A program made the translations under genes and the position numbers. The notes beneath the pieces are model-generated. The model saw only the letters and a program-made list of their open reading frames with translations, searched no databases and was not told the origin of the DNA. A stretch of 56,229 bases of DNA from Sphingobacteriia bacterium (GTDB taxonomy: Bacteria; Bacteroidota; Bacteroidia; B-17B0; Aurantibacillaceae). Location: the NCBI GenBank assembly GCA_009927275.1, contig RFNG01000154.1, forward strand, positions 1 through 56,229. Reading direction: 5' to 3'. Positions 5,685 through 56,162 of this stretch are shown piece after piece. Each line of letters begins with the position of its first letter. The stretch's first letter is position 1.

Positions 5685-8285
5685 ATGAATTTAAACGCAT
5701 TTACTGTTAAAGCTCAAGAAGCCATTCAACAATCGCTTCAAGAAGCCATGCAGCGTAACCATAATGTAATTGAACCGGCACACATTTTTAAAGGTATAAC
5801 CGATGTTGATCAGCATGTATGGCCCTTTTTATTTAAAAAATTACAGGTACAGCCAGAAAAAATTGCAGCTGTAATTGAGCGTATACTTAATCAGATACCA
5901 AAAGTAAGCGGCACAAATACACAGCTATCTGCAGCCGGACAAGAAGTATTATTAAAAGCACAAAGCGCTGCAAAAAAACTAAACGACGAGTTTGCCGCCA
6001 TTGAGCATCTGCTTTTGGGAATAATTTTAGTTAAAAGTCCGGTACAGCAGTATTTAAATGATATTGGCATTTCAGAAAAAAATTTACAATCGGCAATTTC
6101 AGAATTACATCAAGGCGAGCGTGTTACCAGTGCAACACAAGAAGAACAATACCAAGCCCTAAATAAATTTGCAGTAAATTTAAATCAACAGGTAATTGCA
6201 GGAAAACTTGATCCCGTAATTGGACGCGATGAGGAAATCAGAAGGGTTTTACAAATTTTATCTCGGCGCACTAAAAATAATCCTATTTTAGTTGGTGAAC
6301 CCGGCGTTGGAAAAACAGCAATTGCCGAAGGCCTGGCGCATCGCATTCGCAGTGGTGATGTGCCCGAAAATCTTAAAAGTAAGCAGGTATTTGCATTGGA
6401 TATGGGTGCACTTATTGCCGGTGCAAAATTTAAAGGTGAATTTGAAGAACGCTTAAAAGCTGTTGTAAAAGAGGTTATTAAAAGCTCCGGAGAAATCATT
6501 TTATTTATAGATGAAATTCACACGTTAGTGGGTGCCGGCGGAAGCGGCGAAGGTGCCATGGATGCCGCAAACATTTTAAAACCTGCACTTGCCCGAGGCG
6601 AATTACGTGCCATTGGCGCCACTACGCTTAACGAATATCAAAAGTACTTTGAAAAAGACAAAGCGTTAGAACGTCGTTTTCAAAAAGTACTTGTAGACGA
6701 ACCTGCTGCAGAAGATGCCATTTCTATATTACGGGGCATCAAAGAAAAATACGAATTGCATCATCAGGTTCGCATTAAAGATGAAGCCATTATAGCAGCC
6801 GTTGAATTATCACAGCGGTATATTAACGACCGTTTTTTACCCGATAAAGCCATTGATTTAATGGATGAGGCTGCCTCTAAATTACGAATGCAGATAAATT
6901 CCATGCCAATTGAGCTTGATACCATTGAACGTTCTATAATGCAACTTGAAATAGAACGCGAGGCCATAAAACGTGAACACGAAGACGAAAGGGTAAACAC
7001 CCTTAGTCAAGAAATATCAAAATTACAAGAACAACGAAATATACTTCGCGCACGATGGCAATCTGAAAAAGAATCCATCCAAAAAATTCAGCTGTTAAAA
7101 ACACAAATTGAAGATTATAAACAGCAGGCAGCGGTTTTTGAAAAACAAGGCGATTATGGTAAAGTAGCCGAATTACGCTATGGCCGCATTAAAGACACCG
7201 AACTGCAATTGCAAGCATTAGAGCAACAACTTGGAACCGCTAAAGCCTCTGGTGCCTTATTATTAAAAGAAGAAGTAGATCGTGAAGATATTGCAGCCGT
7301 AATTAGCGCCTGGACCGGCATACCTTTAAAAGGCATGCTTCAAAGCGAAAAAGAAAAATTACTTCAACTTGAAGATGAATTGCACAAACGCGTTGTAGGA
7401 CAATCTGAAGCAATAAATGCACTTTCAGATGCTGTAAGGCGAAGCCGGGCCGGTTTACAAGATCAAAAACGTCCCATAGGATCATTTATTTTTTTAGGCA
7501 CAACCGGTGTAGGTAAAACCGAACTTGCCAAGGCACTGGCTGAATTTTTATTTAATAATGAAAATGCCATGACCCGTATTGATATGAGTGAATTTCAAGA
7601 GCGTCATGCCATAAGCCGATTAATTGGCTCACCGCCCGGTTATGTAGGCTATGAAGAGGGCGGACAACTTACCGAAGCGGTTAGGCGAAAACCTTACAGT
7701 GTTATTTTGTTAGATGAAATAGAAAAAGCACATCCTGATGTATTTAATATTTTGCTGCAAGTTTTAGACGATGGACGATTAACAGATAATAAAGGCCGTA
7801 CCGTCAATTTTAAAAACACTATTGTAATTATGACCAGTAATTTAGGAGCCCAACGCATTCAAGAACAAATAGGCGACATAGACGATGACAATCGTGATCG
7901 GATATTAGCCAAATTAAAGGTGGAACTCTTTGATTTACTCAAATCTACATTACGACCTGAGTTTATTAACCGTATTGATGAATTAATTTTGTTTGAACCT
8001 TTAAACCGTAATCAAATACATGCCATTGTTGAACTTCAATTACAACATTTGCAACAACAATTAGCATTACAACATTTAAAATTTAATTGGACCTCAGAAG
8101 CCCTTGAATGGCTTGCTCAACTTGGTTATGATCCGCAATTTGGTGCTCGTCCGGTAAAACGTGTTATTCAAAAACAAGTGTTAAATGAGCTCTCTAAGGC
8201 ATTGCTATCGGGACGACTGGATACTCAAAAATCAATTATACTGGATATGTTTGAACAACAATTTGTATTTCGGCATGAGCATTAA
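5685..8285 (+). CDS. clpB: ATP-dependent disaggregase ClpB
   Basis: 866-residue Hsp100 chaperone that with DnaK dissolves protein aggregates. The order is the paired N-terminal Clp repeats, AAA+ domain 1 with Walker [14 protein letters not shown] (about residue 205) and Walker B ILFIDEIH, the long coiled-coil middle domain (about 400-525) that separates ClpB from ClpA/ClpC, and AAA+ domain 2 with [16 protein letters not shown] and [17 protein letters not shown]2-small domain with FGARPVKR closes the protein. The length is full. The 190-bp upstream gap shows no clear TAnnTTTG box close to the start, so this gene may use another promoter type. Its end overlaps the convergent pseudouridine synthase gene by 4 nt. 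Confidence 0.97.
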
Positions 8286-9345
8286 GATTTTTTTAACTGC
8301 TCCCGTTCAAATGCATCCCAACGCTCCAGGCAAGTCTTAAAATCTTCGGGGAGTTCAGCTTCAATGGTAAGTAATTGCTGCGTAAAAGGGTGCTTAATAC
8401 TAAGGGATTGCGCATGAAGTGCCTGTCTGGGCAAAAGTTCAAGCTGATGATGAACAAACTGCCGGTACGATGCCGTGTTTAAACCCCGTAATACAATATC
8501 CCCTCCATACTCAGAATCACCAAATAAGGGATGTCCCATGGTTTTAAAATGCACCCGTATTTGATGTGTTCGTCCTGTTTCAAGACGGCATTCAAGCAAT
8601 GTTAAATACGAATAACGTTTTAAAACCGAAAGTGGGTAATTGCAGTTTTTCCTAAATCCGAATCCTCAGCAAAGCCATACATGCGTTTTCTATTTTTTGG
8701 ATCACGCCCCACGCGGTATTTTAAAGTTCCCGAATTTTGAGGGATAACACCCCAACATAAGGCAATATACCTGCGGTCTAAATCGTGTTCATAAAAAAGT
8801 CGTGCCAGGCGCATCATGGCATGTTCTGTTTTAGCAATAAGGAGAATCCCTGAAGTATTTTTATCAATGCGATGAACCAAGCCGGGACGTTCAAGTTTTA
8901 AATCTCCACTTACCAGTTGTGAACGCACTGGTAAATTTTGAAAATGAAACAATAAAGCGTTTACAAGTGTTCCTGAATAATGTCCAAATGCCGGATGCAC
9001 CACCATGCCGGGAGGTTTATTTACCATCAGTAAATATGCATCTTCATAACGAATATCAATTGGAATGGCTTCAGGTTTTAAATCCAATATTCGAGGTGGA
9101 TGCGGCAAAAAAATACGAATGTCATCACCCGGTTTTATGCGGTAATTTGATTTTTTTGCATGTTTATTTACCTTGACAAGCCCCTCTTCACAGGCATACT
9201 GTATTTTAGTGCGCGAGGTTTGTGACAAGCGTTGAAATAAAAATTTATCAAGACGCAAAGGAGCCTGACCCAAATCAACTTGTAACTCAAAATGCTGAAA
9301 CAGCTCAGCATCCATTTCATCAGGCTCTAATTCAGGTGCAGACAT
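8282..9345 (-). CDS. RluA/RluD-family pseudouridine synthase (one frameshift)
   Basis: rRNA pseudouridine synthase predicted to modify 23S rRNA. The N-terminal S4 RNA-binding domain (LRLDKFLFQRL) is followed by the catalytic domain with VHRIDKNTSGILLIAKT, containing the catalytic Asp, and then LLECRLETGRTHQIRVH. The second part is in another frame. The first reads to a stop at about 8621 after ITHFRF; the second is open from upstream of 8599. Adding one base at 8626-8627 (CC on the plus strand, GG in the gene) restores a continuous 354-residue protein of normal size. It is probably a sequencing deletion rather than a dead gene. ATG 9345 overlaps the upstream stop codon and is preferred to TTG 9348. 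Confidence 0.85.
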
Positions 9346-11210
9346 CAAGGATGTGAAATTATAAAGGTGCCTGTAAAAAAATCTTTATTCTGTAAAATAC
9401 GATATGCATAACAGCCGTTTGGCCAATTTGTTACAGAAATTGTATTTTGATTTAAATTTCCAGTATAAACCTTTTGACCAATACTATTATAAATATCAAT
9501 AATACCATCACAAAATTGTGTTTTAAAGCTAATCTGATCATGGGCTGGATTTGGAAAAACAACCCTATCTGATTTTTGATTTTGCATTAGAGACAGCAAA
9601 ACAGCACTTCCTATTAAAGGGCGCATCATGAGTGCACCATACAAACCCGAAATTTGCCATCCAGCGCCAGCATCTATCCAAAGCCTGTTACTAAAATCGG
9701 TGTTACGATCAAACCCAATAGGTATGCCCTCTGCAACGTACTGTTCAATACCCACATAATAACTTCCTTTGGACAAAATCACAGGTGTTTTTAAAAGATA
9801 CGTGGTAAACGGCATTCGTGTAGAATCTGCATACCTGGGGTAACTTGCACCATTATCATACAAAACAATGCCAGGTTTGGCATTTACATCAGACCAAATT
9901 TTTATGTTAAATCTATAGGATAAAGATTTTAATTTTAGCGCGGCAACCGGGTCAAAACACAATTGAAGGCCTTGTACCGTATCGCTTTGCTGCAATTCAA
10001 TTTTATAGGCCATTTTTCCCGACTTGGATTTGTTAATATATCCACATTCGGCGGCACCGTCATCCATGGCAAAATAATTTAACAATTGAATTTGCTGTTG
10101 AAGCGAGTCGTTTTCCGAAAAAAAATCATTTATAGCAGCTCCACGCCTAAGTCTGTGTAAAAAGTTTAAACTTATGGATTGGGAAAGCATCCAAGCTGTA
10201 GGTGTTAAATTTAAAGGCGGTTGCGCATGCGGCACATAAGAACTGATACCATTACTGGCAAAGGGCAATAAATTTGTATATCCCCCATTATATAAAATTG
10301 GAGGCTGCGCAGAAAACTGCAGCGTTCGTTCGTACTGCATATTTACTGCTGTTGAATTTAAATTTGAAATGTATACAGATTGTGAATTGCGCAGCAAATC
10401 GGGTTTGAAATGGGTAAATGGTAATTGTCGGGCTGTTAAAAATATTGGGCCCGGCATGCGAGTAAAACAAATATCATTATAAACGGTGTCGTTTTTGGCA
10501 TTTCTAAATCGGTCTAAATACACATAATCGATATGCCATGTATCAAATGCGCCCAATGGGGTGGCTTTATTACGAAATCTAAACTGAAAACTGTCCTGTA
10601 AAAATTCTGCAGTATTAAAAGGTATAAATACACGTTTAAAAATGGAGTCATTAACCTGTGGTACCGTTGGTCCTTTCATAAACCATATGCGGTTTTTCCA
10701 GGTCTTTAATTGTGGGTTGTAAAAATCTAAAATTATAGAATCTTGTATTTCAGGCATATCGCCTAAAGCCCCCGGAATTATATAAAAACTTAGAGCAATA
10801 CTATCCGAAAGTAAAATCGGTTGTCCATTGTATAATTTAAGATTAATCGGCTGAGATACAAGTGTATCAGCCGGTTCTGAGATACTAAAATTTGTGCCTT
10901 CGGGCTGATACGGTAAACCCCAGCGGTTTAATCCATCAAAGGTAAGCATGCCCAAACTCGGTGCCGATTTAGCCATGCCGTGATTTACATACACCGATGG
11001 ACCATTCCACAAAAGTAAATGCGGTATATCGGTTTTATAAGCATAACTAAAATCATCTTTAAAGGGCAATGCCAAAGTTGCCTGAGACTGCTGACGAGAT
11101 TCTAAATGTGTTTTTTGAAGAAACGTGTTAGGCCTGCCTTGTAAGGGAACTAATAATTCCTGTGCCCAAAAATGTAATGGTAATAATACTAAAATACTAA
11201 AACGCATCAT
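9345..11210 (-). CDS. T9SS type A sorting-domain exported protein
   Basis: About 621 residues. After a signal peptide (hydrophobic run ending HFWAQ) comes a long beta-rich region with no recognised catalytic motif. The end is a T9SS C-terminal sorting domain: VVFPNPAHDQ, then IDIYNSIGQKVYTG, then WPNGCYAYRI. The protein should cross the outer membrane through the type IX system and be released or anchored. The start at 11210 overlaps the PASTA gene's end; an upstream in-frame ATG at 11234 would put a charged stretch before the signal peptide and is less likely. It is part of a tightly overlapping leftward operon ending in the pseudouridine synthase. Confidence 0.75.
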   Translation of the reverse strand: MMRFSILVLLPLHFWAQELLVPLQGRPNTFLQKTHLESRQQSQATLALPFKDDFSYAYKTDIPHLLLWNGPSVYVNHGMAKSAPSLGMLTFDGLNRWGLPYQPEGTNFSISEPADTLVSQPINLKLYNGQPILLSDSIALSFYIIPGALGDMPEIQDSIILDFYNPQLKTWKNRIWFMKGPTVPQVNDSIFKRVFIPFNTAEFLQDSFQFRFRNKATPLGAFDTWHIDYVYLDRFRNAKNDTVYNDICFTRMPGPIFLTARQLPFTHFKPDLLRNSQSVYISNLNSTAVNMQYERTLQFSAQPPILYNGGYTNLLPFASNGISSYVPHAQPPLNLTPTAWMLSQSISLNFLHRLRRGAAINDFFSENDSLQQQIQLLNYFAMDDGAAECGYINKSKSGKMAYKIELQQSDTVQGLQLCFDPVAALKLKSLSYRFNIKIWSDVNAKPGIVLYDNGASYPRYADSTRMPFTTYLLKTPVILSKGSYYVGIEQYVAEGIPIGFDRNTDFSNRLWIDAGAGWQISGLYGALMMRPLIGSAVLLSLMQNQKSDRVVFPNPAHDQISFKTQFCDGIIDIYNSIGQKVYTGNLNQNTISVTNWPNGCYAYRILQNKDFFTGTFIISHP

Positions 11211-15066: not shown

Positions 15067-18150
<3,084 letters not shown>

Positions 18151-18158
<8 letters not shown>

Positions 18159-44309: not shown

Positions 44310-44971
44310 TTAGTAGGTTTACGATCTCCAAAAATTGCAGTTCCCATGCGAACCATTGTGCTACCATGTGAAATAGCTAATTTATAATCGGAACTCATAC
44401 CCATGCTTAACACATGGGCGTGTGGAAACAGAGTAGATAACTGCATATATGCCTTTTTAGCCTTTTTAAATTCCTGTTCTAATATGGCTGTTTCGTTTGT
44501 AAAGCTGGCCATTGCCATAAGGCCTAAAATTTTTAGGTGTGGATAGCGTGTGGTAATATCAGAATGTATAAAGGCCTGGAATTCATCCTCACTAAAACCA
44601 AATTTACTTGTTTCGCTCGCTACGTGCAGTTGCAATAATACAGGTTGGATTTTTCCAATTAAAGCTGCTTGTTTTTCAATTTCATGAGCCAACTCTTTGC
44701 GGTCTAAACTGTGTATTAAATAAACATAGGGTAGAATCTGTTTTACTTTATTACGCTGCAAATGGCCGATAAAATGCCAGTGAATGGCTTTTGGCAATTG
44801 TGCCTGCTTGGCATGCAACTCCTGAACATAATTTTCTCCAAAATCTCGTAAACCGGCATTATAGGCCTGTAAAATATTTTCTGGAGTATGATGTTTTGAT
44901 ACGGCCAGCAAAGTAACCCCCTGGGGTAATGCCTGCTGAATGTGATGTATCCGTTTTGAAATTTCGGTCAT
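44306..44971 (-). CDS. YggS-family PLP homeostasis protein
   Basis: 221 residues. It binds pyridoxal phosphate and regulates vitamin B6 and amino acid levels. LLAVSKHHTPENI contains the PLP-binding Lys. DFGENYVQEL, HWHFIGHLQRNKVK and LSMGMSSDYKLAISHGSTMVRMGTAIFG, the phosphate-binding end, are all in place. A reading from 44992 is possible, but ATG 44971 overlaps the DUF1015 stop (ATGA) and starts MTEISKRI, so it is the better start. Confidence 0.92.
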   Translation of the reverse strand: MTEISKRIHHIQQALPQGVTLLAVSKHHTPENILQAYNAGLRDFGENYVQELHAKQAQLPKAIHWHFIGHLQRNKVKQILPYVYLIHSLDRKELAHEIEKQAALIGKIQPVLLQLHVASETSKFGFSEDEFQAFIHSDITTRYPHLKILGLMAMASFTNETAILEQEFKKAKKAYMQLSTLFPHAHVLSMGMSSDYKLAISHGSTMVRMGTAIFGDRKPTK

Positions 44972-46175
44972 GCCTGCATGGAATATATACAAAGCGCACT
45001 CAGTAGTTTAGGCTCTATCCAAGTTGACTTTGGAGGCATGGTTTGATTTGAATCTGCAATACTTTTAAGTTGATTAAGCGAAACCGGATGCAGTACAAAT
45101 AAAATATCAGCCCTACCTTCATTAACCCACTGCGTTTGCTGATGTACAGGACGTATACCGGGAATGAAACTAACCCGTGAATCATTTCTTAAATCTGTAA
45201 TGTTAAACAGCGGTTTTAAAATTAAGTCATTTAAAAGCTGGGTGTCTAATTCGGAATGCGTATAACGTTTTTCAATTGTCCAACAATACCAAATACCATT
45301 TGTATAAAACCATATTTGTCCTTGTGTTACTGGGGCTTTAAATTCAATTTCAGGAATCAATGATCCGTATTTTTTGCAATGCGATACCAGTACATTTCTA
45401 TCTATGGGCCTGTCAAGTTTAATGGCACGGTTAAATTCAATAATACGTAATTGTGTTTCAGAAAAAAATACACCTAAATAATGTGCATATGACTCCGTTT
45501 GGGATTTGGATTTCCACAACCGGGCCGACGAGGCTGACCTGTGATGCCCATCTGCAATATAAACGGCATTAAGTTGTTGAAATTCAAATTGCATTAATTG
45601 CACTAAACCGGAATCAACACAGGCCAAATTTCATGCCGCGTACCTTCGGAATCTGTAAAACCGGTTTCTGAGGGGGTTTGCATTATACCATTTATACATG
45701 ATGTAAGATTAGGCCGTTCAGGATATGCAAACAACACCGGCTCTGCATTAAAGCCACACACATCCAGGTATTTTTGTAATTTAAATTCGCGGGATTCTAA
45801 CGTTTGTTCATGTATTTTAATAATTCCATTAAAATAATCCTGCACTGCAATTGTTGCTATAACACCTGTGTAAACAAAGGCGCCTTTTTGCTGGCGGTAA
45901 ACATAATATCCGGCTTGAACATCCTGTTTTAAAATACCTTGATGTGTAAATTCCACAAACCGCTTTCGGGTTTTTTGTAGTCGCTCATCAGACCCTGCTT
46001 TGGTTATTTGCCCATCCTGAAAATCAGGATGTATAACGTGTAAAAACGATTGCGGGTAATTTTTTAAATGGTGTTTTAAATCCTCTGCAGAATATCGGTC
46101 GGCAGGATGTGATACCACATTAGATGCCTCAGCAGCATTAGGTCGATACGCACGAAACGGACGGATATCAGCCAT
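44968..46175 (-). CDS. DUF1015 family protein (one frameshift)
   Basis: About 402 residues if one base is restored. The N-terminal half begins [12 protein letters not shown] and continues VVSHPADRYSAEDL and YVYRQQ. The C-terminal half has VYIADGHHRSASSARLWK, the conserved His-rich motif of the family. The first frame ends at 45603 with HEIWPVLIPV; the second opens before 45627. Adding one base near 45617-45620 (GTGTT to GTGGTT in the gene) gives HEIWPVVDSGL. In other Bacteroidota this family sits next to serA and serC, and here serA is adjacent. Function unproven, possibly linked to serine metabolism. ATG 46175 is preferred to TTG 46181. Confidence 0.82.
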
Positions 46176-47118
46176 TGGCAAAAGCCTTGATTAATAGTTC
46201 GGCTAGTTCAATACCTATACGTTCTTGGGCTTCACGTGTAGCCGCTCCAATATGCGGACTTAGTGAAAGTTTAGGGTGTTGTATTACCGAGGGATCCGGT
46301 TGAGGCTCATGCGCGTAAACATCTAAACAGGCATGGGCTACGCGTTTAGAATCTAAGGCTTGCAATAATGAATGTTCATGTATGACAGATCCGCGCGACG
46401 TATTAATTAATATAACACCGGGTTTTAAAAGTAAAAACTGATCGGGACCAATAAGTTCTCCACCCGGTACATGACAGGTAATAATATCGGCATGTTGTAA
46501 AACCGATTCTAGTGACTCGGTTTGCACTTCAACGGTTATTTCAGATGCTGCAATGCTCCATGCCAGTTTTAATTTTGTAATATTGGGATCATAAACCCGC
46601 AATTGCATACCAAGGCCCAGTGCCATTTTAGCAACTGCCTGACCAATACGACCAAAACCCAAAATGCCAAGGGTTTTACCCTGCAATTCGGTGCCTTCTG
46701 AAAACTTTTTTTTCAATTCGTTAAAAGCTGTAGTTCCCCGTACAGGCATTTCACGGTTACTCTGGTATAAAAACCGAACTGCTGAAAATGCATGTGCAAA
46801 TACCAATTCGGCAACCGACCGACTGGATGCTGCAGGCGTATTAATAACTTGAATGCCTTTAGATTCGGCAAATGCCACATCGATATTATCCATACCCACG
46901 CCACCGCGTGCAATAATTTTTAATTGTGGGCAGGCTTCAATAAGTTCTTTACGAACTTTAGTTGCACTTCGTACAACCAATGCGTCAATGTTATAAGTAT
47001 TAATATACGTGGCTAATTCAGATTGAGGTATGGCTTGGGTTTGAACATTAAAACCTGCTGCTGTAAGACGTTCGATGCCCGAGGCATCCATCCCATCGTT
47101 GGCTAAAATTGATTTCAC
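46168..47118 (-). CDS. serA: D-2-hydroxyacid dehydrogenase, SerA-type
   Basis: 316 residues, probably D-3-phosphoglycerate dehydrogenase, the first step of serine synthesis. The NAD-binding loop is [18 protein letters not shown]. The catalytic Arg is in INTSRGSVI and the Glu/His pair in [10 protein letters not shown] and [23 protein letters not shown] is the substrate-loop motif. There is no C-terminal ACT domain, as in short SerA forms. The GTG start at 47118 sits 4 nt from a TAATTTTG box. It precedes DUF1015 with an 8-nt overlap. No serC is in the window, so the role is likely but not certain. Confidence 0.85.
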
Positions 47119-47206: not shown

Positions 47207-48684
<1,478 letters not shown>

Positions 48685-48699
48685 AATAATGTAAATAGT

Positions 48700-49401
48700 A
48701 TGACACAACACGAAATCATTTTAAAACTGCTTCAGGAAAAATCCTCCATGAAACAGGACGTGTATCTTAAAACCCAAGCTGCATTTGATGAATTACGAAA
48801 CCTGTTAAAAGCACAAAGCGATCGTATATCAAGCGCTATTAATACAATAGATAAACGTATTCGTGTGGAATTTAAAGATGTAGGTATACAATCGATGTTT
48901 ATTAAAGTAGCCGGTGATGTTTTGGATTTTCAAATGCATACTAACGTATTTAATTTTCAAACTACACACCCTATATATAAACATTCCTATGTACGTCAAA
49001 ATCCACAAAATGCTTACAGTGGCATTATCAGTATTTATAATTTTTTAGCCGATTCATACAAATACAACCGCTTGCAAGATGTAGGGTATTTAATAGCCCG
49101 CATTTTTATTAATCGCGAGGGCCGCTTTTGGGTTGAAACCCGTATTAAATCATTACAAGCATATACTTCCATTTCTGAACAAGCTTTTTCGGCAGATGCA
49201 TTACAGCACATTATTGATCACCTGATTATTTTTGCAATTGAATTTGACTTGTACACACCTCCCTTTGAACAAATGCTGCAGGTAACAGTTGCTGAATTGC
49301 AGGAAAAAGCTTCGGCCATGGCCTTACGAACCGGTAAACGTTTAGGTTTTTTAGGAAGTTCGGGGCATGAATTTAATATCGAAGATGTTTCAAACCTTTG
49401 A
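48700..49401 (+). CDS. Conserved-looking cytoplasmic protein, unknown function
   Basis: 233 residues with no signal peptide or membrane segment. The first 55 residues are Lys/Glu-rich helix. The middle is mixed alpha/beta with aromatic motifs (VLDFQMHTNVFNFQTTHPIYKHSYV and IISIYNFLADSYKYNRLQDVGYLIARIFIN). The last third is helical. I do not recognise the family. It starts 15 nt after proS and its end overlaps the glycosyltransferase gene by 17-35 nt, so the three probably share a transcript. Confidence 0.6.
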   Translation: MTQHEIILKLLQEKSSMKQDVYLKTQAAFDELRNLLKAQSDRISSAINTIDKRIRVEFKDVGIQSMFIKVAGDVLDFQMHTNVFNFQTTHPIYKHSYVRQNPQNAYSGIISIYNFLADSYKYNRLQDVGYLIARIFINREGRFWVETRIKSLQAYTSISEQAFSADALQHIIDHLIIFAIEFDLYTPPFEQMLQVTVAELQEKASAMALRTGKRLGFLGSSGHEFNIEDVSNL

Positions 49402-50545
49402 ACATTTGAAAATTAAACGTCTTATCATAATCGGTCCCGCCTACCCGCTTCGTGGCGGCCCTGCAGTTTTTAATGAAAATTTAGCATGGCACTGCCAACA
49501 ATCCGGAATTGAAACCGAAATACTTTCATACACCTACCAATACCCTTCATTTTTATTTCCAGGCAGTACTCAATTTAATACATCAGATGCTCCAAAAGAC
49601 CAAATAAAACGCCGGGCCCTAATTCATACTTTAAATCCCTATACCTGGTGGACTACAGCAAAATACATTAAACAACAAAAACCGGATGTAATTCTTATTC
49701 GGTTTTGGCTGCCCTTTTTTGCTCCCGCATTGGGCAGTATTGCCCGTTTGGTATTTAAAAGCACCCGTGTTATAGCACTTACAGACAATGTAATTCCCCA
49801 TGAAACACGAATTGGCGACCGTATGCTAATTCGTTATTTTATAAAATCATGCCATGGCTTTATAACCATGAGCAAATCGGTTAAAGATGAGTTAGAACAT
49901 TTAAATATTAAAAAACCTATTGCATTAACCCCCCATCCATTGTATGAAACGTATGGTCCCGCCATGGAACGTAAAAAAGCACGTGAGATTTTACAATTAC
50001 CCATGGATGCCGATATTGTATTGTACTTTGGCCTTATTCGCCATTATAAGGGATTGGACTTGTTAATTGAAGCATTTAACAACTGTGCGGCACAACTACC
50101 CAATATGTATTTACTTATAGCCGGAGAATGCTACGAAAAACCTGAACCCTACAGTGCCATGATTGCTGAATCGGCATATAAACAGCGCATTATATGGCAT
50201 CAGCACTTTATTAAAGATGAGGCCATACCCGCTTATTTTTGTGCTGCAAATTTAGCTGCTCAAACCTACAGACATGCCACAAACAGCGGGGTTAGCATGC
50301 TGGCCTATTATTACCGTACACCGTTATTGGTAACGGCCACAGGCGGACTACAAGATATTGTACCCCACAACAAAGCCGGTTTTTGTATACCCGTTAATAC
50401 CTCAGCCATAGCAGAACATTTAGTGTTATATTTTAAAAATAATCTCGAACAGCCGTTTAAACGTGGCTTAGAATCAGAACGTATTAAATACCAGTGGTCT
50501 GCGTTTTTAGATGCCCTTCAAACCCTTTATAAAAGTATTTCCTGA
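49367..50545 (+). CDS. Glycosyltransferase family 4 protein
   Basis: 392 residues with the GT-B fold. The N-terminal domain has IIGPAYPLRGGPAVFNENLA. The C-terminal nucleotide-sugar domain shows VLYFGLIRHYKGLDLLIEAF and the donor-binding region SGVSMLAYYYRTPLLVTATGGLQDIV. No signal peptide is present; the enzyme probably works on the inner leaflet for surface polysaccharide or lipid glycosylation. Met at 49385 is an alternative start that shortens the overlap with the upstream gene. No other sugar genes are adjacent. Confidence 0.83.
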   Translation: MNLISKMFQTFEHLKIKRLIIIGPAYPLRGGPAVFNENLAWHCQQSGIETEILSYTYQYPSFLFPGSTQFNTSDAPKDQIKRRALIHTLNPYTWWTTAKYIKQQKPDVILIRFWLPFFAPALGSIARLVFKSTRVIALTDNVIPHETRIGDRMLIRYFIKSCHGFITMSKSVKDELEHLNIKKPIALTPHPLYETYGPAMERKKAREILQLPMDADIVLYFGLIRHYKGLDLLIEAFNNCAAQLPNMYLLIAGECYEKPEPYSAMIAESAYKQRIIWHQHFIKDEAIPAYFCAANLAAQTYRHATNSGVSMLAYYYRTPLLVTATGGLQDIVPHNKAGFCIPVNTSAIAEHLVLYFKNNLEQPFKRGLESERIKYQWSAFLDALQTLYKSIS

Positions 50546-50627: not shown

Positions 50628-51878
50628 ATGGCTTTGCAAGTTAACATTCATGACATTTTAGGACAGCTGTATCAACATCGCGATTTGGTAGCGTATTTAT
50701 TTGCCAATCGCGATCGTGTTAGCTTAAATGAACTGATAGCAGCAGGCTCACTTACACAAGAACAGTATCTGAAACTTAAATCTCTTGATTTAATTTATGA
50801 TTATGAGGGTGTCATTAGTTTAAATGATGCCGTTGTAAGCATGTTTGAGGAATTTATGGAAATTGGCGAGGTTACTCCTGGATTGGTGCGTGATTACATG
50901 AATGAATTACAACGGCAATTACGATTTTATACCGACATACGCGAATTACGTTTTTTACGTGGTGTAAAAAAATATTTAAAACGCATTGACGTTGCTTTAA
51001 GCCGAGAAATAATTAAACTTCAAAAAAATGTAGACGATACTTATAAAAACGAATCCAATTACCGTGTTAAAATACAAAAGCTTGAAGATTACCGTGAAAA
51101 ACGCGATACTATTATTAGTTTTATTAAAAGCACACATGACATTATAGATACTAACAGAAATTTATTTAACCTATCAAACGATAACGAACTTTTTGGAATA
51201 GTAAGCGCCTTAAAACATAGTTTAATTGAAAACCTGGACTATCTGATAGAAATACAAACCGATATTACAGATTACATTAATAAAATACAGCTTCAGCTTG
51301 ACAGCTATCTTAAAGCCCAGCAAGTAAAAGAAATTAAAGATCGAGGACAATTGTATTACCAAACCAATTTCAAATCCGTTATTGAATCCGTAAATACACT
51401 GCGCCACAATAATATTAAAACGCCGCGAACCCGCATATCCGTGAACGCCTTATTTACGGATGAAGGCCATGTGTTATGTCAAAAAATTGCTGAAAAATAT
51501 AAACTCAGCAGATTACTTGCCCGTGGTATTGCCGAAAAACTCTCTGGTAATTACAAGGAGAAAGCTTTAGAGCAACAATTAAAACTTGATACCGAACGAT
51601 TGGTGGAACGTTTTTTAAATCAAGAAAAACAAAACCTGTTTTTGTATTTAATGGATTATAAATTTCCAAAAGCCATTGGCGACGTACATCTTGAAGATCG
51701 CTTGTCACTATTTGTTGAAATAGCAATGGAATATCAAAATAAAATGGATTTTAAATACCGCTTAGAATATTACAATTATAATGATGCACAGCAACAACAT
51801 CGTAAAATTGGATATACGTTAATTGTTCCGCCAAAACTCAAATCGTCAAAAAAATCAAAAACACCACAACGTACCTAA
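50628..51878 (+). CDS. MukF/MksF-like kleisin of a condensin complex
   Basis: 416 residues. The first 75 or so are winged-helix-like (VSLNELIAAGSLTQEQYLKLKSLDLIYDYEGVISLND). The next 230 are long amphipathic helices with coiled-coil character (IIKLQKNVDDTYKNE, LDSYLKAQQVKEIKDRG). The C-terminal part again looks like a small domain (LFVEIAMEYQNKMDF). This matches the winged-helix, helical middle, winged-helix plan of MukF/MksF/JetA. The assignment rests on this layout plus the two following genes; sequence identity is low. The gene ends 1 nt before the MksE-like ATG. Confidence 0.62.
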   Translation: MALQVNIHDILGQLYQHRDLVAYLFANRDRVSLNELIAAGSLTQEQYLKLKSLDLIYDYEGVISLNDAVVSMFEEFMEIGEVTPGLVRDYMNELQRQLRFYTDIRELRFLRGVKKYLKRIDVALSREIIKLQKNVDDTYKNESNYRVKIQKLEDYREKRDTIISFIKSTHDIIDTNRNLFNLSNDNELFGIVSALKHSLIENLDYLIEIQTDITDYINKIQLQLDSYLKAQQVKEIKDRGQLYYQTNFKSVIESVNTLRHNNIKTPRTRISVNALFTDEGHVLCQKIAEKYKLSRLLARGIAEKLSGNYKEKALEQQLKLDTERLVERFLNQEKQNLFLYLMDYKFPKAIGDVHLEDRLSLFVEIAMEYQNKMDFKYRLEYYNYNDAQQQHRKIGYTLIVPPKLKSSKKSKTPQRT

Positions 51879-51879
51879 T

Positions 51880-52473
51880 ATGCTAGCCGAAGATTTTAAC
51901 CTCCCTAAACAAACACATACTATATTTTCAATTATGGCACGCGGACACTTTATATCAAGCAATGGTACGCGCGAAGGCATGAACAGGCTTTATGATATAA
52001 TTAATAACCCCGAACATTTTGAACGTTTACAAGCTTATTTCAACATCATTCATTACCAAATTGAACGGGGTAACAATTACTTCTATTTTTCAAAAATGCA
52101 AGAACCGCAATCTGAACTCGAAAAAAAACTTGAGCGGTTTGAACGTTATCTTGACATTATTGATTTGTTTGCAAGTATGGATAATAAAATAACCATTGGT
52201 AGCCGATTTCGACCCTCAGAAATTGCAGAGGAATGTGTTGCCAATGTGCGTTTAAAACAAAAGCTTCAAAAAATTCCATTGTACCGCTCTGAAACCTTGC
52301 ATAATAAGGTTCGTGAAATTTGTGATCTTTTAAGCCGCGATTCGTTTTTAGAACTGGAAGATGAAAAAACAGAATCCTATAAAGTACTGGATGCCTACAC
52401 GTATTTATTGGATATTGTAAACGCAATTGCTATTTACGAAGAACCCTCAACCTTAGAAAATACAAAATTATGA
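51880..52473 (+). CDS. MukE/MksE-like condensin subunit
   Basis: 197 residues from ATG 51880, which follows the upstream stop by 1 nt; a longer frame from 51823 overlaps that gene and is less likely. MksE-type features are the early segment IFSIMARGHFISSNGTREGMNRLYDII, then LQAYFNIIHYQIERGNNYFYFSK, i.e. the two small winged-helix folds of the family. A helical C-terminal part follows. MukE-type proteins bind the kleisin dimer and bridge it to the SMC heads. The stop overlaps the next gene (ATGA), so production is coupled. Confidence 0.68.
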   Translation: MLAEDFNLPKQTHTIFSIMARGHFISSNGTREGMNRLYDIINNPEHFERLQAYFNIIHYQIERGNNYFYFSKMQEPQSELEKKLERFERYLDIIDLFASMDNKITIGSRFRPSEIAEECVANVRLKQKLQKIPLYRSETLHNKVREICDLLSRDSFLELEDEKTESYKVLDAYTYLLDIVNAIAIYEEPSTLENTKL

Positions 52474-55400
52474 GTATACCAAATTGCAGAATATTAAACC
52501 GGATTGTTGAAATTAATATAGCCAATGTTCGCTATGCAGATATTGAATTAAGCGGAAATACCTGTTTTGTAGGCACCAATAATTTTGGGAAAACTTCCTT
52601 GCAACGGGCCATACTGTTTTTTTATAGTGCCAACAGTCGTGGATTGGGAATATCCTCATCGCAAAAAAGTTTTGAAGAACATTATTTCAGGTATGAAAAT
52701 TCGTTTTTGATATATGAAATAGCCACGGAAGATAAACCGTTTATGGTTATCGTATACCGTCATAACAAATTGGTATTTAGATTTATTGATGCTGCTTACG
52801 ACGTTGACTTATTTATAAATAGCAGTGATGAAGCCATGAAAATAAAAGAACTTGTAAATGGCCTAGAACGTCGTGGTATTTTTGTATCAAACCAAATTGA
52901 TACTTTTGAAAGGTACCGTAATGTAATTTACGGAACCGAAGTTGATAAACAACTTTCACGGTTTTTTTTACTTAAGGGTAATGAAAAATACCAAAATATT
53001 CCAAAGTCTATAACCAATGTGTTTTTATCTTCTAAAAGCAGTATAGATTCACGTTTTATTAAAGATTTTATTGCAAACTCGCTAAGTACCGAAGACAGCA
53101 GTATAAAACTAGAACAAATTGAGCGGCAATTACGGCAATTCAATGAAAAATTTGTAGATATAGAAACCTATCTTAAAAAGGACACGCAGGCCCTGATTGA
53201 ATTTATAGACAAAAAATACGACCAGGTTCAAATGCTTAAAGGCATGCAGTATGAGCTGGCGGAGAAATTAGGTAGCAGTTTACATTATGCCGAAACCCAA
53301 CACGATGCAATTCGCCAAGCCGCTATTAAAAAAGAGGAAGAGCTGGAAACATTAAAAACTCAACTTGATGCATTTTTAGAAAAAAGTAATGAAAAACAAT
53401 TGGACATACGTGAAGAAATTGGATACTACGATCGCAGCATTCGTGAAGCACAGAAAAAACTAAAAATTTACCAAGATCAACATATTGAAGAGGTGCTTAA
53501 AAAAAACAGTGAGCGTGAAAAACTGCAGGTGGAATTAAATATGGCACGCCGTGAATATGAAAGTTTAACCTCAAATGTTACCAGTCTTGAATTAAAATAC
53601 ACAAGTTTATTAGAACAAATACGAAACGACAAAATTGCTTTTATTAATAAACTTAACAGTAAACTTAATGAGGTTTTTAACCATTATAATGAGTTGATAT
53701 TGGTTGAAAAAAACGAATTCAATAAAACCGATTCCAGATTAAAACTTGAACGCGATGAAAAATTAACAGCTATTCAAGAAGAATGGACTTCCAAGCAAAT
53801 TGAAATTAATGAAATTAAAAATCAGGAAAAATTAATTACAGGAACTCGGTTTTACGAACACGAAATACGATTATTAGAACAGGAAATTTCAGAATTATTG
53901 GCTATAAGCTTAAAAAATAAAAGCGAACGGGCTATTAAGCAAAATTTAGTTCAAACACTTCAACGTGAGTGGGAGCATCATGAACAAAAACTAAAATCTG
54001 CTTTGCAATTACAAGTACAGCACAGTCAAAATGAAATCGAAAAATTAAAAACAGAAATTCAAACCATTGAAGGTAAATTGTCCATTCAGCACGATGCTTT
54101 GTACGGTTTTTTGGAAAAAAATGTAAAAAACTGGCATGAGCATATAGGCAAAGTTATTCGTGAAGACGTTTTATTTAGAACGGACTTACATCCGGAGTAT
54201 ATAAAAGAACATGCTACAGATACTATTTACGGCATTAAAATAAAAACTACAGAACTCAGCAGCAGCTCTAAAACGTTGGAGCTTTATCAGTACGATAAAA
54301 ACGAACGCCTGCAGGCCATAAAAGGTATAGAGGAAGCCCTTAATCAATTTCAGCAAAACAATACGCATGAAAAAATGGCTTTGGCTGACAAATACGGAAA
54401 ACAACTCAGCGAGCTAAAAGAAGATATAAAAGTGCTGAGTTATTCACTTGAATTGGCAGAACAAAAAGAGCAAAAACTCAATTTAGAACTTGAAGAATGG
54501 AATACACGAGCACGTCAAGAAACAGAACAATCTTTAAGTGGTAACCGTCAACGTTATAATATACTTGAGGAAGAATTACAGCTTTTAACGCGTAAAAAAA
54601 ATGTAATGCTTCAGGATTATAACAATCAGCTTGATAAACTTCAGCAAAACCATAAAGGCCGATTAGATGAAATTAAAAAACGTCAAGATACTGAAATGGC
54701 CAGTATGGACACCGAGAAGAAAAGCCGCGTAAAAGAATTTGAATCAAAAGAACTGGAATTACATACTGAAAAAGAAAAAAACTTTAAATCTAAAGGCGTA
54801 GACGCAAAATTACTTAAACAGGTTGAGTCCCAAATTCAAAATCTGCAAACACAAATGCGCGAATTGGAACAATACGATACACTAATTAATGATTATTTAA
54901 AAGACAAGCGCGAGTTATTTGATGTACTTCCCAGTTTAATTGAAAAGAAAGAACAATTTGTAAAATCTAATACAGAAATTATGTCTGCTGTTGAAGATGC
55001 TAAACGCAAGCATAACCTTCAGGAGATGGAATTAAATAAGCAAAAACGAGCATTTGATGAGGAATTGATAGAATTTAATAACGGAATAACTTTTTACACA
55101 TCTAATTTCAGAGAATCACCCGTATATCACAAATTTGCAGATATCATCGAACGCGCTGAACCAAAACGTACACAATATAAAATTTCGGATTTGTGCACCC
55201 AGTTACTAAAAAATGACTCGCATTACAACGAGGAATTTGGTGCGTTTCAGCGTTATATCAATGAGTTTTCGGGTAAATTCAGACTTGAAAATCACTTTAA
55301 TTTTGTTATTCGCAATGATGCCAGCGCTGGAGAATACGACCGATTTGCTCAAAATCTTCGAAATTTTATACACGAAAATAAAATCGAATTGTCAGTTGCT

Positions 55401-56162
55401 GAAACGGCCACACAAATCAGTCTGGTTACCGACAGTATTGCGGGCAAAGTAAAAGAACTTAGTGGACAAAAAGATAAAATTCAGCATATTATTTCATTAA
55501 TTGCTGAAGACTTTAAAAAAGCTGAATTTGAAGAAAGCAAGCTGATTGAGTTTATTAAAATTCGTTTAGATGAATCGGATAATAAAGTGTACAAATTACT
55601 TAAACGTATACAAGAATTTAGAGAAGAAAACGGCTTGATATACAATGAAGGACTCTTTAATACCGATTATGCGACCGCCGGTAAACGTGAAATTAGCAGT
55701 AAAGCAGTTAAATTGTTAGAGCAATTGCGCAGTGCCATAAACGAACAAGAGCAAGAAGAAATACGATTACAGGATTTGTTTGAATTAAAATTCAATATTA
55801 AAGAAGGCATGAACGAAACAGGCTGGACGCATCGTATTGAAAGTATTGGAAGTACCGGTACCGACATTTTAGTAAAAGCCATTATATACATTACTTTATT
55901 GCATGTGTTTATAAAAGAATCTTCACATCGCAGCAGTAAAGACTTTAAAGTACATTGCATTATTGATGAAGTGGGACAGATATCGGCACATTACTTGCGT
56001 GAATTGTTGCGATTTGCAAAAAACCGAAATATTATGATGATTAATGGTTTACCAAATAAATCAGGACTTGAAAGCCACTATAAATACACCTATCAATTTA
56101 GACGTGAAGAAGATCAGAATGTTCGTATATTTCCTAGCATAGTTACAGAGGTTGAAGCTTAA
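52470..56162 (+). CDS. MukB/MksB-like SMC ATPase
   Basis: 1230 residues. Walker A GTNNFGKTS is at 35-43. Two long coiled-coil arms (about 260-520 and 620-880) flank a less coiled middle around 525-615, the likely hinge. The C-terminal head has a signature-like IGSTGTDILVKA (STG at about 1128) and Walker B CIIDEVGQIS (Asp-Glu at about 1166). MukB has a comparable GTGMSILV signature and Walker B spacing. The protein should form a DNA-entrapping ring with the two upstream products. It is diverged from canonical SMC. It could serve chromosome organisation or, if a JetD/MksG nuclease is encoded downstream, plasmid defence. Confidence 0.75.
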   Translation: MSIPNCRILNRIVEINIANVRYADIELSGNTCFVGTNNFGKTSLQRAILFFYSANSRGLGISSSQKSFEEHYFRYENSFLIYEIATEDKPFMVIVYRHNKLVFRFIDAAYDVDLFINSSDEAMKIKELVNGLERRGIFVSNQIDTFERYRNVIYGTEVDKQLSRFFLLKGNEKYQNIPKSITNVFLSSKSSIDSRFIKDFIANSLSTEDSSIKLEQIERQLRQFNEKFVDIETYLKKDTQALIEFIDKKYDQVQMLKGMQYELAEKLGSSLHYAETQHDAIRQAAIKKEEELETLKTQLDAFLEKSNEKQLDIREEIGYYDRSIREAQKKLKIYQDQHIEEVLKKNSEREKLQVELNMARREYESLTSNVTSLELKYTSLLEQIRNDKIAFINKLNSKLNEVFNHYNELILVEKNEFNKTDSRLKLERDEKLTAIQEEWTSKQIEINEIKNQEKLITGTRFYEHEIRLLEQEISELLAISLKNKSERAIKQNLVQTLQREWEHHEQKLKSALQLQVQHSQNEIEKLKTEIQTIEGKLSIQHDALYGFLEKNVKNWHEHIGKVIREDVLFRTDLHPEYIKEHATDTIYGIKIKTTELSSSSKTLELYQYDKNERLQAIKGIEEALNQFQQNNTHEKMALADKYGKQLSELKEDIKVLSYSLELAEQKEQKLNLELEEWNTRARQETEQSLSGNRQRYNILEEELQLLTRKKNVMLQDYNNQLDKLQQNHKGRLDEIKKRQDTEMASMDTEKKSRVKEFESKELELHTEKEKNFKSKGVDAKLLKQVESQIQNLQTQMRELEQYDTLINDYLKDKRELFDVLPSLIEKKEQFVKSNTEIMSAVEDAKRKHNLQEMELNKQKRAFDEELIEFNNGITFYTSNFRESPVYHKFADIIERAEPKRTQYKISDLCTQLLKNDSHYNEEFGAFQRYINEFSGKFRLENHFNFVIRNDASAGEYDRFAQNLRNFIHENKIELSVAETATQISLVTDSIAGKVKELSGQKDKIQHIISLIAEDFKKAEFEESKLIEFIKIRLDESDNKVYKLLKRIQEFREENGLIYNEGLFNTDYATAGKREISSKAVKLLEQLRSAINEQEQEEIRLQDLFELKFNIKEGMNETGWTHRIESIGSTGTDILVKAIIYITLLHVFIKESSHRSSKDFKVHCIIDEVGQISAHYLRELLRFAKNRNIMMINGLPNKSGLESHYKYTYQFRREEDQNVRIFPSIVTEVEA

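What the first reader, a model, noticed from the sequence alone, without database searches (positions are those of the whole stretch)
50628..56162. Divergent MukBEF/MksBEF-like condensin operon (F-E-B)
Three tightly coupled genes (gaps of 1 nt and -4 nt) encode a winged-helix/coiled-coil kleisin-like protein, an MksE-like protein and a 1230-residue SMC-type ATPase. The ATPase shows Walker A (GTNNFGKTS), a MukB-like signature (STGTDILVKA) and Walker B (IIDEVGQIS). The F-E-B order matches Mks and Wadjet jetABC. A fourth jetD/mksG nuclease gene would begin after the window's end, so the role (chromosome organisation or plasmid exclusion) is open. The upstream neighbours are housekeeping genes, not defence genes, and a weak terminator-like hairpin follows the last gene. 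Both favour a chromosome role.
Basis: partly seen in the sequence, partly recalled or inferred. Interest (0 to 1): 0.68.

Follow-up and report, generated by a model that had tools for sequence, protein, structure and literature searches.

The report
Nuclease-free MksBEF, apparently the only condensin
The three genes encode a complete MksFEB condensin, the kind of DNA-loop machine that folds and separates chromosomes, and in this uncultured Bacteroidota family it seems to have taken the place of the usual bacterial SMC complex rather than working as plasmid defence.

Summary
The operon is real: mksF (416 aa), mksE (197 aa), mksB (1230 aa), spaced +1 and -4 nt. MksE and MksB match Pfam MksE and DUF3584. 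MksF has no profile match, but its predicted fold ranks Wadjet and MukBEF entries first.

The contig ends 67 nt after mksB, so the next gene cannot be read here. In relatives: 57 of 61 genomes of the family have an MksB (DUF3584) match; none of the 61 has ScpA or full-length SMC above cut-off; and no family orthologue with a readable flank has an MksG/JetD-type gene beside it by three profiles. Six family genomes carry separate JetABCD with JetD. So this is most likely the chromosomal condensin, and the only recognisable one.

Of 247 class genomes, 54 were sorted as carrying a nuclease-free Mks operon (three lineages); none of these has ScpA. Of 25 with nuclease-type systems, 7 have ScpA. The rule is not strict: three Cytophagales outside the sample have both.

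The core call is right. The chromosome role is better supported than defence, by genomic evidence only.

The parts
50628..51878 (+). mksF, kleisin subunit, 416 aa
   Evidence: ORF; family orthologues 51-69% identical; AF2 model pLDDT 74.7, pTM 0.42; top PDB fold matches are JetABCD, JetABC and MukBEF/MukEF entries; no Pfam, PADLOC or NCBIfam family above cut-off
50646..50855 (+). predicted N-terminal helical, winged-helix-like domain of MksF (residues 7-76)
   Evidence: secondary structure of the model; the name winged-helix-like is my reading
51880..52473 (+). mksE, kite subunit, 197 aa
   Evidence: PF21980 MksE, 8.5e-29, 101 bits vs cut-off 27; start chosen from relatives
52470..56162 (+). 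mksB, SMC-type ATPase, 1230 aa
   Evidence: PF12128 DUF3584 2.6e-60 over residues 23-1207; orthologues in or near the family 57-74% identical
52572..52598 (+). Walker A GTNNFGKTS (MksB residues 35-43)
   Evidence: read in the translation; G35, G40, K41 invariant in 15 sequences
54081..55274 (+). predicted hinge-like region (about residues 538-602) and the second long coiled-coil arm (about 603-935); the first arm is about 214-537
   Evidence: helix pattern of the low-confidence model of residues 7-1206, mean pLDDT 66.9
55851..55880 (+). ABC signature-like motif STGTDILVKA (1128-1137)
   Evidence: S1128, G1130, T1131, D1132 invariant
55959..55985 (+). Walker B IIDEVGQIS (1164-1172)
   Evidence: D1166, E1167 invariant
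49367..50545 (+). upstream glycosyltransferase, part of the conserved neighbourhood, not of the complex
   Evidence: PF00534 1.2e-17; next to mksF in many relatives
47207..48684 (+). upstream proS, split by a frameshift in this assembly; part of conserved synteny
   Evidence: two overlapping ORFs; tblastn of a 492-aa relative covers both frames; first part matches proS_fam_I

Best explanation
This is a complete MksBEF condensin without an MksG/JetD nuclease. MksB dimers (ABC head, two long coiled-coil arms, hinge-like middle) would be bridged by the kleisin MksF carrying MksE dimers. ATP-driven head cycling would capture and extrude DNA loops. With no nuclease, the output would be compaction and segregation of the chromosome, not cutting of small circles. 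In this family it appears to be the only condensin, standing in for SMC-ScpAB as MukBEF does in enterobacteria. Shown here: protein identities, motifs, predicted folds, near-universality in the family, absence of SMC-ScpAB by profile search, and no MksG/JetD-type gene beside orthologues by three profiles. Inferred: assembly of the complex, loop extrusion, chromosome role.
For: MksE and DUF3584 matches. MksF model: the best eight PDB matches are all Wadjet or Muk entries (8q72_E 4.3e-4, the only one below 0.001; then 8as8_E, 9gm7_C, 8dk2_A and others). MksB model: Wadjet-II 9qe0_A 7.6e-11, MukBEF 9gm7_A 1.0e-9, condensin, and Rad50 only at 0.04. DUF3584 over the cut-off in 57 of 61 family genomes and in all 40 listed as at least 95% complete; in contrast JetD_C is in 6 of 61. 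ScpA in 0 of 61, SMC over cut-off in 0 of 61, ScpB in 1 of 61, while the same searches found them in 8, 7 and 8 of the other 39 class genomes. Of 102 MksB-bearing loci scanned with profiles of three nuclease families, 4 had a match: L051 and L053 (extra Mks copies in family genomes) and L054 and L157 (other groups). In 84 loci with 1.5 kb or more downstream the next ORF varies and is on the other strand in 26 (contigs fetched twice and three Cytophagales loci included). MksB of the family is one clade, 100/100. In 247 class genomes, 0 of 54 with nuclease-free Mks have ScpA (Fisher 3.5e-7, kinship not corrected), against 7 of 25 with nuclease-type systems (p 0.45).
Against: No experiment. The gene after mksB in this genome is not assembled. 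Three Cytophagales genomes with the sister nuclease-free operon also have ScpA, two Persicobacter plasmids carry nuclease-free F-E-B, and two odd E-B systems (G141, G242) sit with ScpA, so lack of a nuclease does not by itself mean sole condensin. In the family, MksB was not found in G003, G031, G053 and G060: G060 has a frameshifted F-E-B, G031 (73% complete) an MksE piece, G003 only a JetB, G053 nothing. In one contig (L037/L089) a PD-(D/E)XK-family gene lies between mksE and mksB. A distant Toprim nuclease elsewhere is not excluded: the DUF7281 genome search missed a known positive. 123 of 247 class genomes show neither ScpA nor MksE, so life without a recognisable condensin may be common here.
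Confidence: 0.75

Rival explanations
1. It is a Wadjet-like plasmid-exclusion system (JetABC) whose JetD/MksG nuclease lies past the contig end or elsewhere.
For: Same F-E-B order as jetABC; MksF model nearest to Wadjet entries; related F-E-B operons carry a 284-aa Toprim-like gene directly downstream, including extra copies in two family genomes, G021 and G046.
Against: No MksG/JetD-type gene beside the family's own orthologues; JetD_C absent from the own genome and found in the family only in separate JetABCD operons; PADLOC Jet models match weakly (JetB1 0.0007, JetC1 0.035); presence is near-universal, unlike the patchy JetABCD.
Confidence: 0.12
2. A nuclease-free accessory Mks complex that silences or blocks plasmids or other foreign DNA without cutting, while chromosome folding is done by something not recognised.
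For: 123 of 247 class genomes show neither ScpA nor MksE, so an unrecognised folding machine could exist; nuclease-free copies occur on Persicobacter plasmids.
Against: Near-universal in the family and one clade; shared neighbourhood with proS and a glycosyltransferase in many genomes; in the class sample the nuclease-free operons occur only where ScpA is absent.
Confidence: 0.11
3. The ATPase belongs to another coiled-coil family (SbcC/Rad50, RecN) and the neighbours are unrelated.
For: A weak AAA_15 match below cut-off and a weak match to the PADLOC AriA model (1.7e-5).
Against: DUF3584 2.6e-60; the fold search ranks Wadjet, MukBEF and condensin first and Rad50 at 0.04; conserved MksE and kleisin-like partners.
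Confidence: 0.02

Closest known systems
MksBEF of Pseudomonas aeruginosa (nuclease-free Mks condensin)
   Same: Three-subunit condensin without nuclease, linked to chromosome organisation and segregation (PMC7485682, passages; PMC10586767, passages).
   Different: P. aeruginosa also has SMC-ScpAB; here no SMC or ScpA is found in 61 family genomes. No direct sequence comparison with P. aeruginosa MksB was made.
MksBEFG / Wadjet JetABCD
   Same: Same subunit order and kleisin, kite and SMC parts; predicted folds rank Wadjet entries first.
   Different: No MksG/JetD-type gene beside the operon in family relatives; bona fide JetABCD exist separately in six family genomes.
MukBEF of enterobacteria
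   Same: Muk-type complex that stands in for SMC-ScpAB; MukBEF entries rank high in both fold searches.
   Different: Gene order F-E-B as in Mks and Jet. MatP and other Muk partners were not searched for.
F-E-B plus 284-aa Toprim-like gene in other Bacteroidota (L051, L054, L173-L177)
   Same: The same three genes; MksB of L051 and L054 is 28-29% identical to the window's.
   Different: They carry a downstream gene related to DUF7281/JetD_C; in the tree they lie outside the clade of the family plus Cytophagales.

Membership tests
MksBEF | MksE kite subunit | tested here: met
   PF21980 101 bits, cut-off 27
MksBEF | SMC-type ATPase of the MukB/MksB/JetC kind with Walker A, signature, Walker B and long arms | tested here: met
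   PF12128; motifs invariant; arms in the model; fold ranking. The hinge is only suggested, at low confidence
MksBEF | kleisin MksF | tested here: met
   fold ranking: top eight PDB matches are Wadjet or Muk entries. TM-scores are low (0.14-0.26), only one match is below 0.001, chain identities are recalled, and there is no sequence-profile match
MksBEF | F-E-B operon order | tested here: met
   in 18 loci an unrelated gene lies between E and B
MksBEF | subunits form one ATP-driven DNA-binding complex | not testable with these tools
   needs biochemistry
Wadjet JetABCD / MksBEFG | JetD/MksG Toprim nuclease in the operon | tested here: inconclusive
   not found beside family orthologues; in the window itself the contig ends 67 nt after mksB
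Wadjet JetABCD / MksBEFG | match to Jet profile models | tested here: not met
   only weak partial matches to JetB1 and JetC1, none for MksF
SMC-ScpAB | TIGR02168 SMC with ScpA and ScpB | tested here: not met
   0 of 61 family genomes for ScpA and for SMC over cut-off, 1 of 61 for ScpB
SbcC/Rad50 or RecN | closest fold or profile | tested here: not met
   Rad50 at E 0.04, behind Wadjet, MukBEF and condensin
Chromosomal condensin (role) | loss disturbs nucleoid structure or segregation | not tested
   needs a cultured relative

The most novel reading that the evidence does not exclude
In the class to which this genome belongs (Bacteroidota), Mks-type complexes have repeatedly dropped (or never had) the nuclease and taken over chromosome duty from SMC-ScpAB: this long F-E-B lineage, an F3-E3-B3 lineage, and a short B-F-E lineage with an SMC of about 890 residues. 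Each lineage also has cousins with a nuclease-like gene that look like defence systems. That would be parallel exchange between plasmid immunity and housekeeping, and it would supply candidate condensins for part of a phylum in which some members were reported to have none.
Probability: 0.45. Interest if true: 0.75.

Novelty: new member of a known kind. Interest (0 to 1): 0.55.

Why it matters
A Hi-C study reported no homologue of a known condensin in the two Bacteroidetes of its mouse-gut set and argued that other SMC complexes remain to be found (PMC10197239, passages read). MksBEF is described as typically found together with SMC-ScpAB or MukBEF (PMC7485682, passages; PMC12153180, passages). 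A family in which nuclease-free MksBEF is the only recognisable condensin gives a natural test of whether Mks alone can run a chromosome. The class-wide pattern gives testable cases of how a DNA-loop machine moves between plasmid defence and chromosome upkeep, an origin that a review calls unresolved (PMC10586767, section 7 read).

Tried and rejected
Terminator after mksB: scanned and folded, at chance level, rejected.

DUF7281 (PF23947) genome search: nothing rang anywhere, and it missed G021, whose copy (L051) matches the model at 32.4 bits. It is not used as evidence of absence.

A fourth subunit between mksE and mksB: a gene of about 332 aa sits there in 18 loci, some of them one contig fetched twice. 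Its sequence begins with a secretion-signal-like stretch (my reading) and the one copy scanned has no Pfam match. Genes of other families sit in the gaps of the operon elsewhere, a Fic gene between F and E (L088) and a PD-(D/E)XK gene between E and B (L089). Read as insertions into a loosened operon, not a subunit.

Sequence search of the PDB with MksF and MksB profiles: no match for MksF; 14 for MksB, none of them an SMC protein.

Strict exclusion of SMC-ScpAB by nuclease-free Mks: rejected as a universal rule. Three Cytophagales genomes have both (in that of 7 genomes had ScpA). G141 and G242 have ScpA plus an E with a short B and no F found.

Bacteroidales: Parabacteroides distasonis has a nuclease-free F-E-B on a record labelled plasmid but flanked by gcvT, NAD(+) synthase and glutamine synthetase III. 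The control genome Bacteroides ihuae rang for neither MksE, DUF3584 nor ScpA, so this does not settle the Bacteroides question. The DUF3584 search rang in none of the 14 control genomes, so that model is narrow.

Rows and limits. A DUF3584 match does not by itself tell the family's own MksB from an extra copy; orthology was checked only in the loci fetched. The SMC search scored at most 6 candidates per genome. Of 79 MksE-positive genomes in the class sample, 4 were set aside because the operon is cut or incomplete (G089, G150, G178, G211) and 2 as odd (G141, G242); tests with them added are. The lists were made by hand; G026, G027 and the G251 core copy were read afterwards and agree. G000 and G016 were counted as nuclease-free by family although their contigs end just after mksB; G208's B gene is cut by a contig end. 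G106 was counted as nuclease-type by its JetABC, its JetD was not seen in the stretch fetched. The nuclease-like genes in G247 and in L238 match my profile only weakly (29 and 33 bits). The family-level Fisher values use assumed numbers of families and are not relied on.

Full report
WHAT IS THERE. The window is one whole contig of a 2.29-Mb genome in 165 contigs. Its last three genes, 50628-56162 on the + strand, are mksF, mksE and mksB, with gaps of +1 and -4 nt (mksE start at 51880 judged from relatives). Only 67 nt follow mksB.

IDENTITY. MksE matches Pfam MksE (8.5e-29) and MksB matches DUF3584 over nearly its full length (2.6e-60); MksF matches nothing above a cut-off. An AlphaFold model of MksF from 37 sequences (pLDDT 74.7, pTM 0.42) ranks JetABCD, JetABC, MukBEF and MukEF entries in the first eight places in the PDB; that the matched chains are JetA and MukF is recalled, not printed. 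TM-scores are low (0.14-0.26), so the ranking carries the argument. A model of MksB residues 7-1206 (pLDDT 66.9, pTM 0.32) has a poorly predicted head, but two coiled-coil arms of about 325 residues around a small middle region. Its best matches are Wadjet-II JetABC and MukBEF, then condensin; Rad50 is far behind. Nucleotide-binding motifs are invariant over 15 sequences down to 28% identity.

THE MISSING NUCLEASE. Since the contig ends, I looked at orthologues. Gene maps show F-E-B in one shared setting in many genomes (proS, a gene of unknown function, a glycosyltransferase, then F-E-B) and in other settings elsewhere. I scanned 102 loci that hold an MksB of this type or its nearest relatives with profiles of three Toprim-like nuclease families built here. 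Four had a match: two extra Mks copies in family genomes (L051, L053) and two from other groups (L054, L157). True JetABCD with JetD_C exists in six family genomes as a separate operon, in three of them beside a WYL-type regulator. In one contig a PD-(D/E)XK-family gene sits between E and B.

THE ONLY RECOGNISABLE CONDENSIN. Of 61 genomes in the family (own included), DUF3584 is over the Pfam cut-off in 57, including all 40 listed as at least 95% complete. ScpA: 0 of 61. SMC over its cut-off: 0 of 61. ScpB: 1 of 61, at a contig end in G021. The same searches found ScpA in 8, ScpB in 8 and SMC in 7 of the other 39 class genomes, so they work in this phylum. Misses for MksB are G003, G031, G053 and G060; G060 has a frameshifted F-E-B, which may be decay or indel errors.

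CLASS-WIDE PATTERN. In 247 class genomes of at least 90% completeness, ScpA is in 54, MksE in 79, a short B-F-E relative in 30 (all also MksE-positive), and neither ScpA nor MksE in 123. I read the neighbourhoods of the MksE hits and sorted them by hand. 54 genomes carry a nuclease-free operon and none of them has ScpA. 25 carry a nuclease-type one and 7 of these have ScpA. Kinship is not corrected for. By family, 14 have nuclease-free operons and 17 have ScpA, with no overlap. Three nuclease-free lineages contribute (long F-E-B, F3-E3-B3, short B-F-E), and each has cousins with a nuclease-like gene, only weakly recognisable in the short one.

EXCEPTIONS. Chryseosolibacter, Sporocytophaga and Parachryseolinea carry the sister nuclease-free operon and also ScpA. 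A fourth relative of that clade (L157) carries a 281-aa DUF7281 gene and ScpA. Two Persicobacter plasmids have nuclease-free F-E-B and two have nuclease-bearing ones; two Phocaeicola records have nuclease-bearing ones. So co-existence, as in Pseudomonas, occurs; the family of the window looks like the case where SMC-ScpAB was then lost. In the tree the family is one clade, sister to those Cytophagales, with the main nuclease-bearing clade outside (some branches are long, and the root is for drawing only). Whether the nuclease was lost or gained is not decided. No phage record matched, and the seven plasmid records that cover at least 80% of MksB are 25.8-29.4% identical.

KNOWN OR NEW. By the features tested this is an MksBEF, so a member of a known kind. 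What stands out is that it appears alone. In the held open library I found no paper that reports MksB as the sole condensin of a Bacteroidota group (searches; Petrushenko 2011 itself is not held). PMC10197239 comes nearest: it notes distant MksBEF homologues in two gut species for which the passages read mention no Smc-ScpAB, and no condensin in its two Bacteroidetes.

CONFIDENCE. Identity as MksBEF: about 0.95. Chromosome role as the main or only condensin: about 0.75. All functional statements are inference from genomes.

Noticed in passing
window:47207-48684, 16543-18158, 44968-46181, 8282-9348: Several housekeeping genes look split into two overlapping or adjacent frames: proS (shown by tblastn), pyrG (first ORF matches CTP synthase only to position 398), a two-ORF stretch at 44968-46181 and a pseudouridine-synthase-like pair (recalled, not tested). 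Probably indel errors in the assembly.
   Followed up: partly
window:48700-49401: Protein of 233 aa with no Pfam match above cut-off that sits beside proS in many relatives (cluster of 23): a conserved family of unknown function.
   Followed up: no
window:52470-56162: The window's MksB has a longer end branch (0.34) than its family rows (up to about 0.16) in the tree, and the genome (2.29 Mb) is smaller than most of its relatives: perhaps a fast-evolving, reduced lineage.
   Followed up: no
L064, L065, L066 and 27 further class genomes: A short SMC of about 890 aa with its own kleisin-like and MksE-like genes, mostly in order B-F-E and without a nuclease (30 of 247 genomes): a candidate second condensin type in the class. 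In L181 and L238 (G247, G251) a weakly Toprim-like gene lies between B and F.
   Followed up: partly
L051:13549-14403, L054:13911-14765, L157:11683-12528: 281-284 aa gene directly after an F-E-B operon, matching DUF7281 and weakly JetD_C: looks like a compact MksG.
   Followed up: partly
L170, L171 (G141, G242): MksE with a shortened B (1050 and 1020 aa) and no recognisable kleisin; a 115-120 aa gene precedes E in both.
   Followed up: partly
L245 (Parabacteroides distasonis, NZ_OY725754.1): Nuclease-free F-E-B between ordinary chromosomal genes on a record labelled plasmid, perhaps a chromosome fragment filed as a plasmid.
   Followed up: partly
G021 contig 7 end (L183): A lone ScpB match (140 bits) in a family that otherwise lacks ScpA, ScpB and SMC: contamination or transfer.
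   Followed up: partly
class sample: 123 of 247 genomes have neither ScpA nor MksE by these models: either no condensin or one not yet recognised.
   Followed up: no
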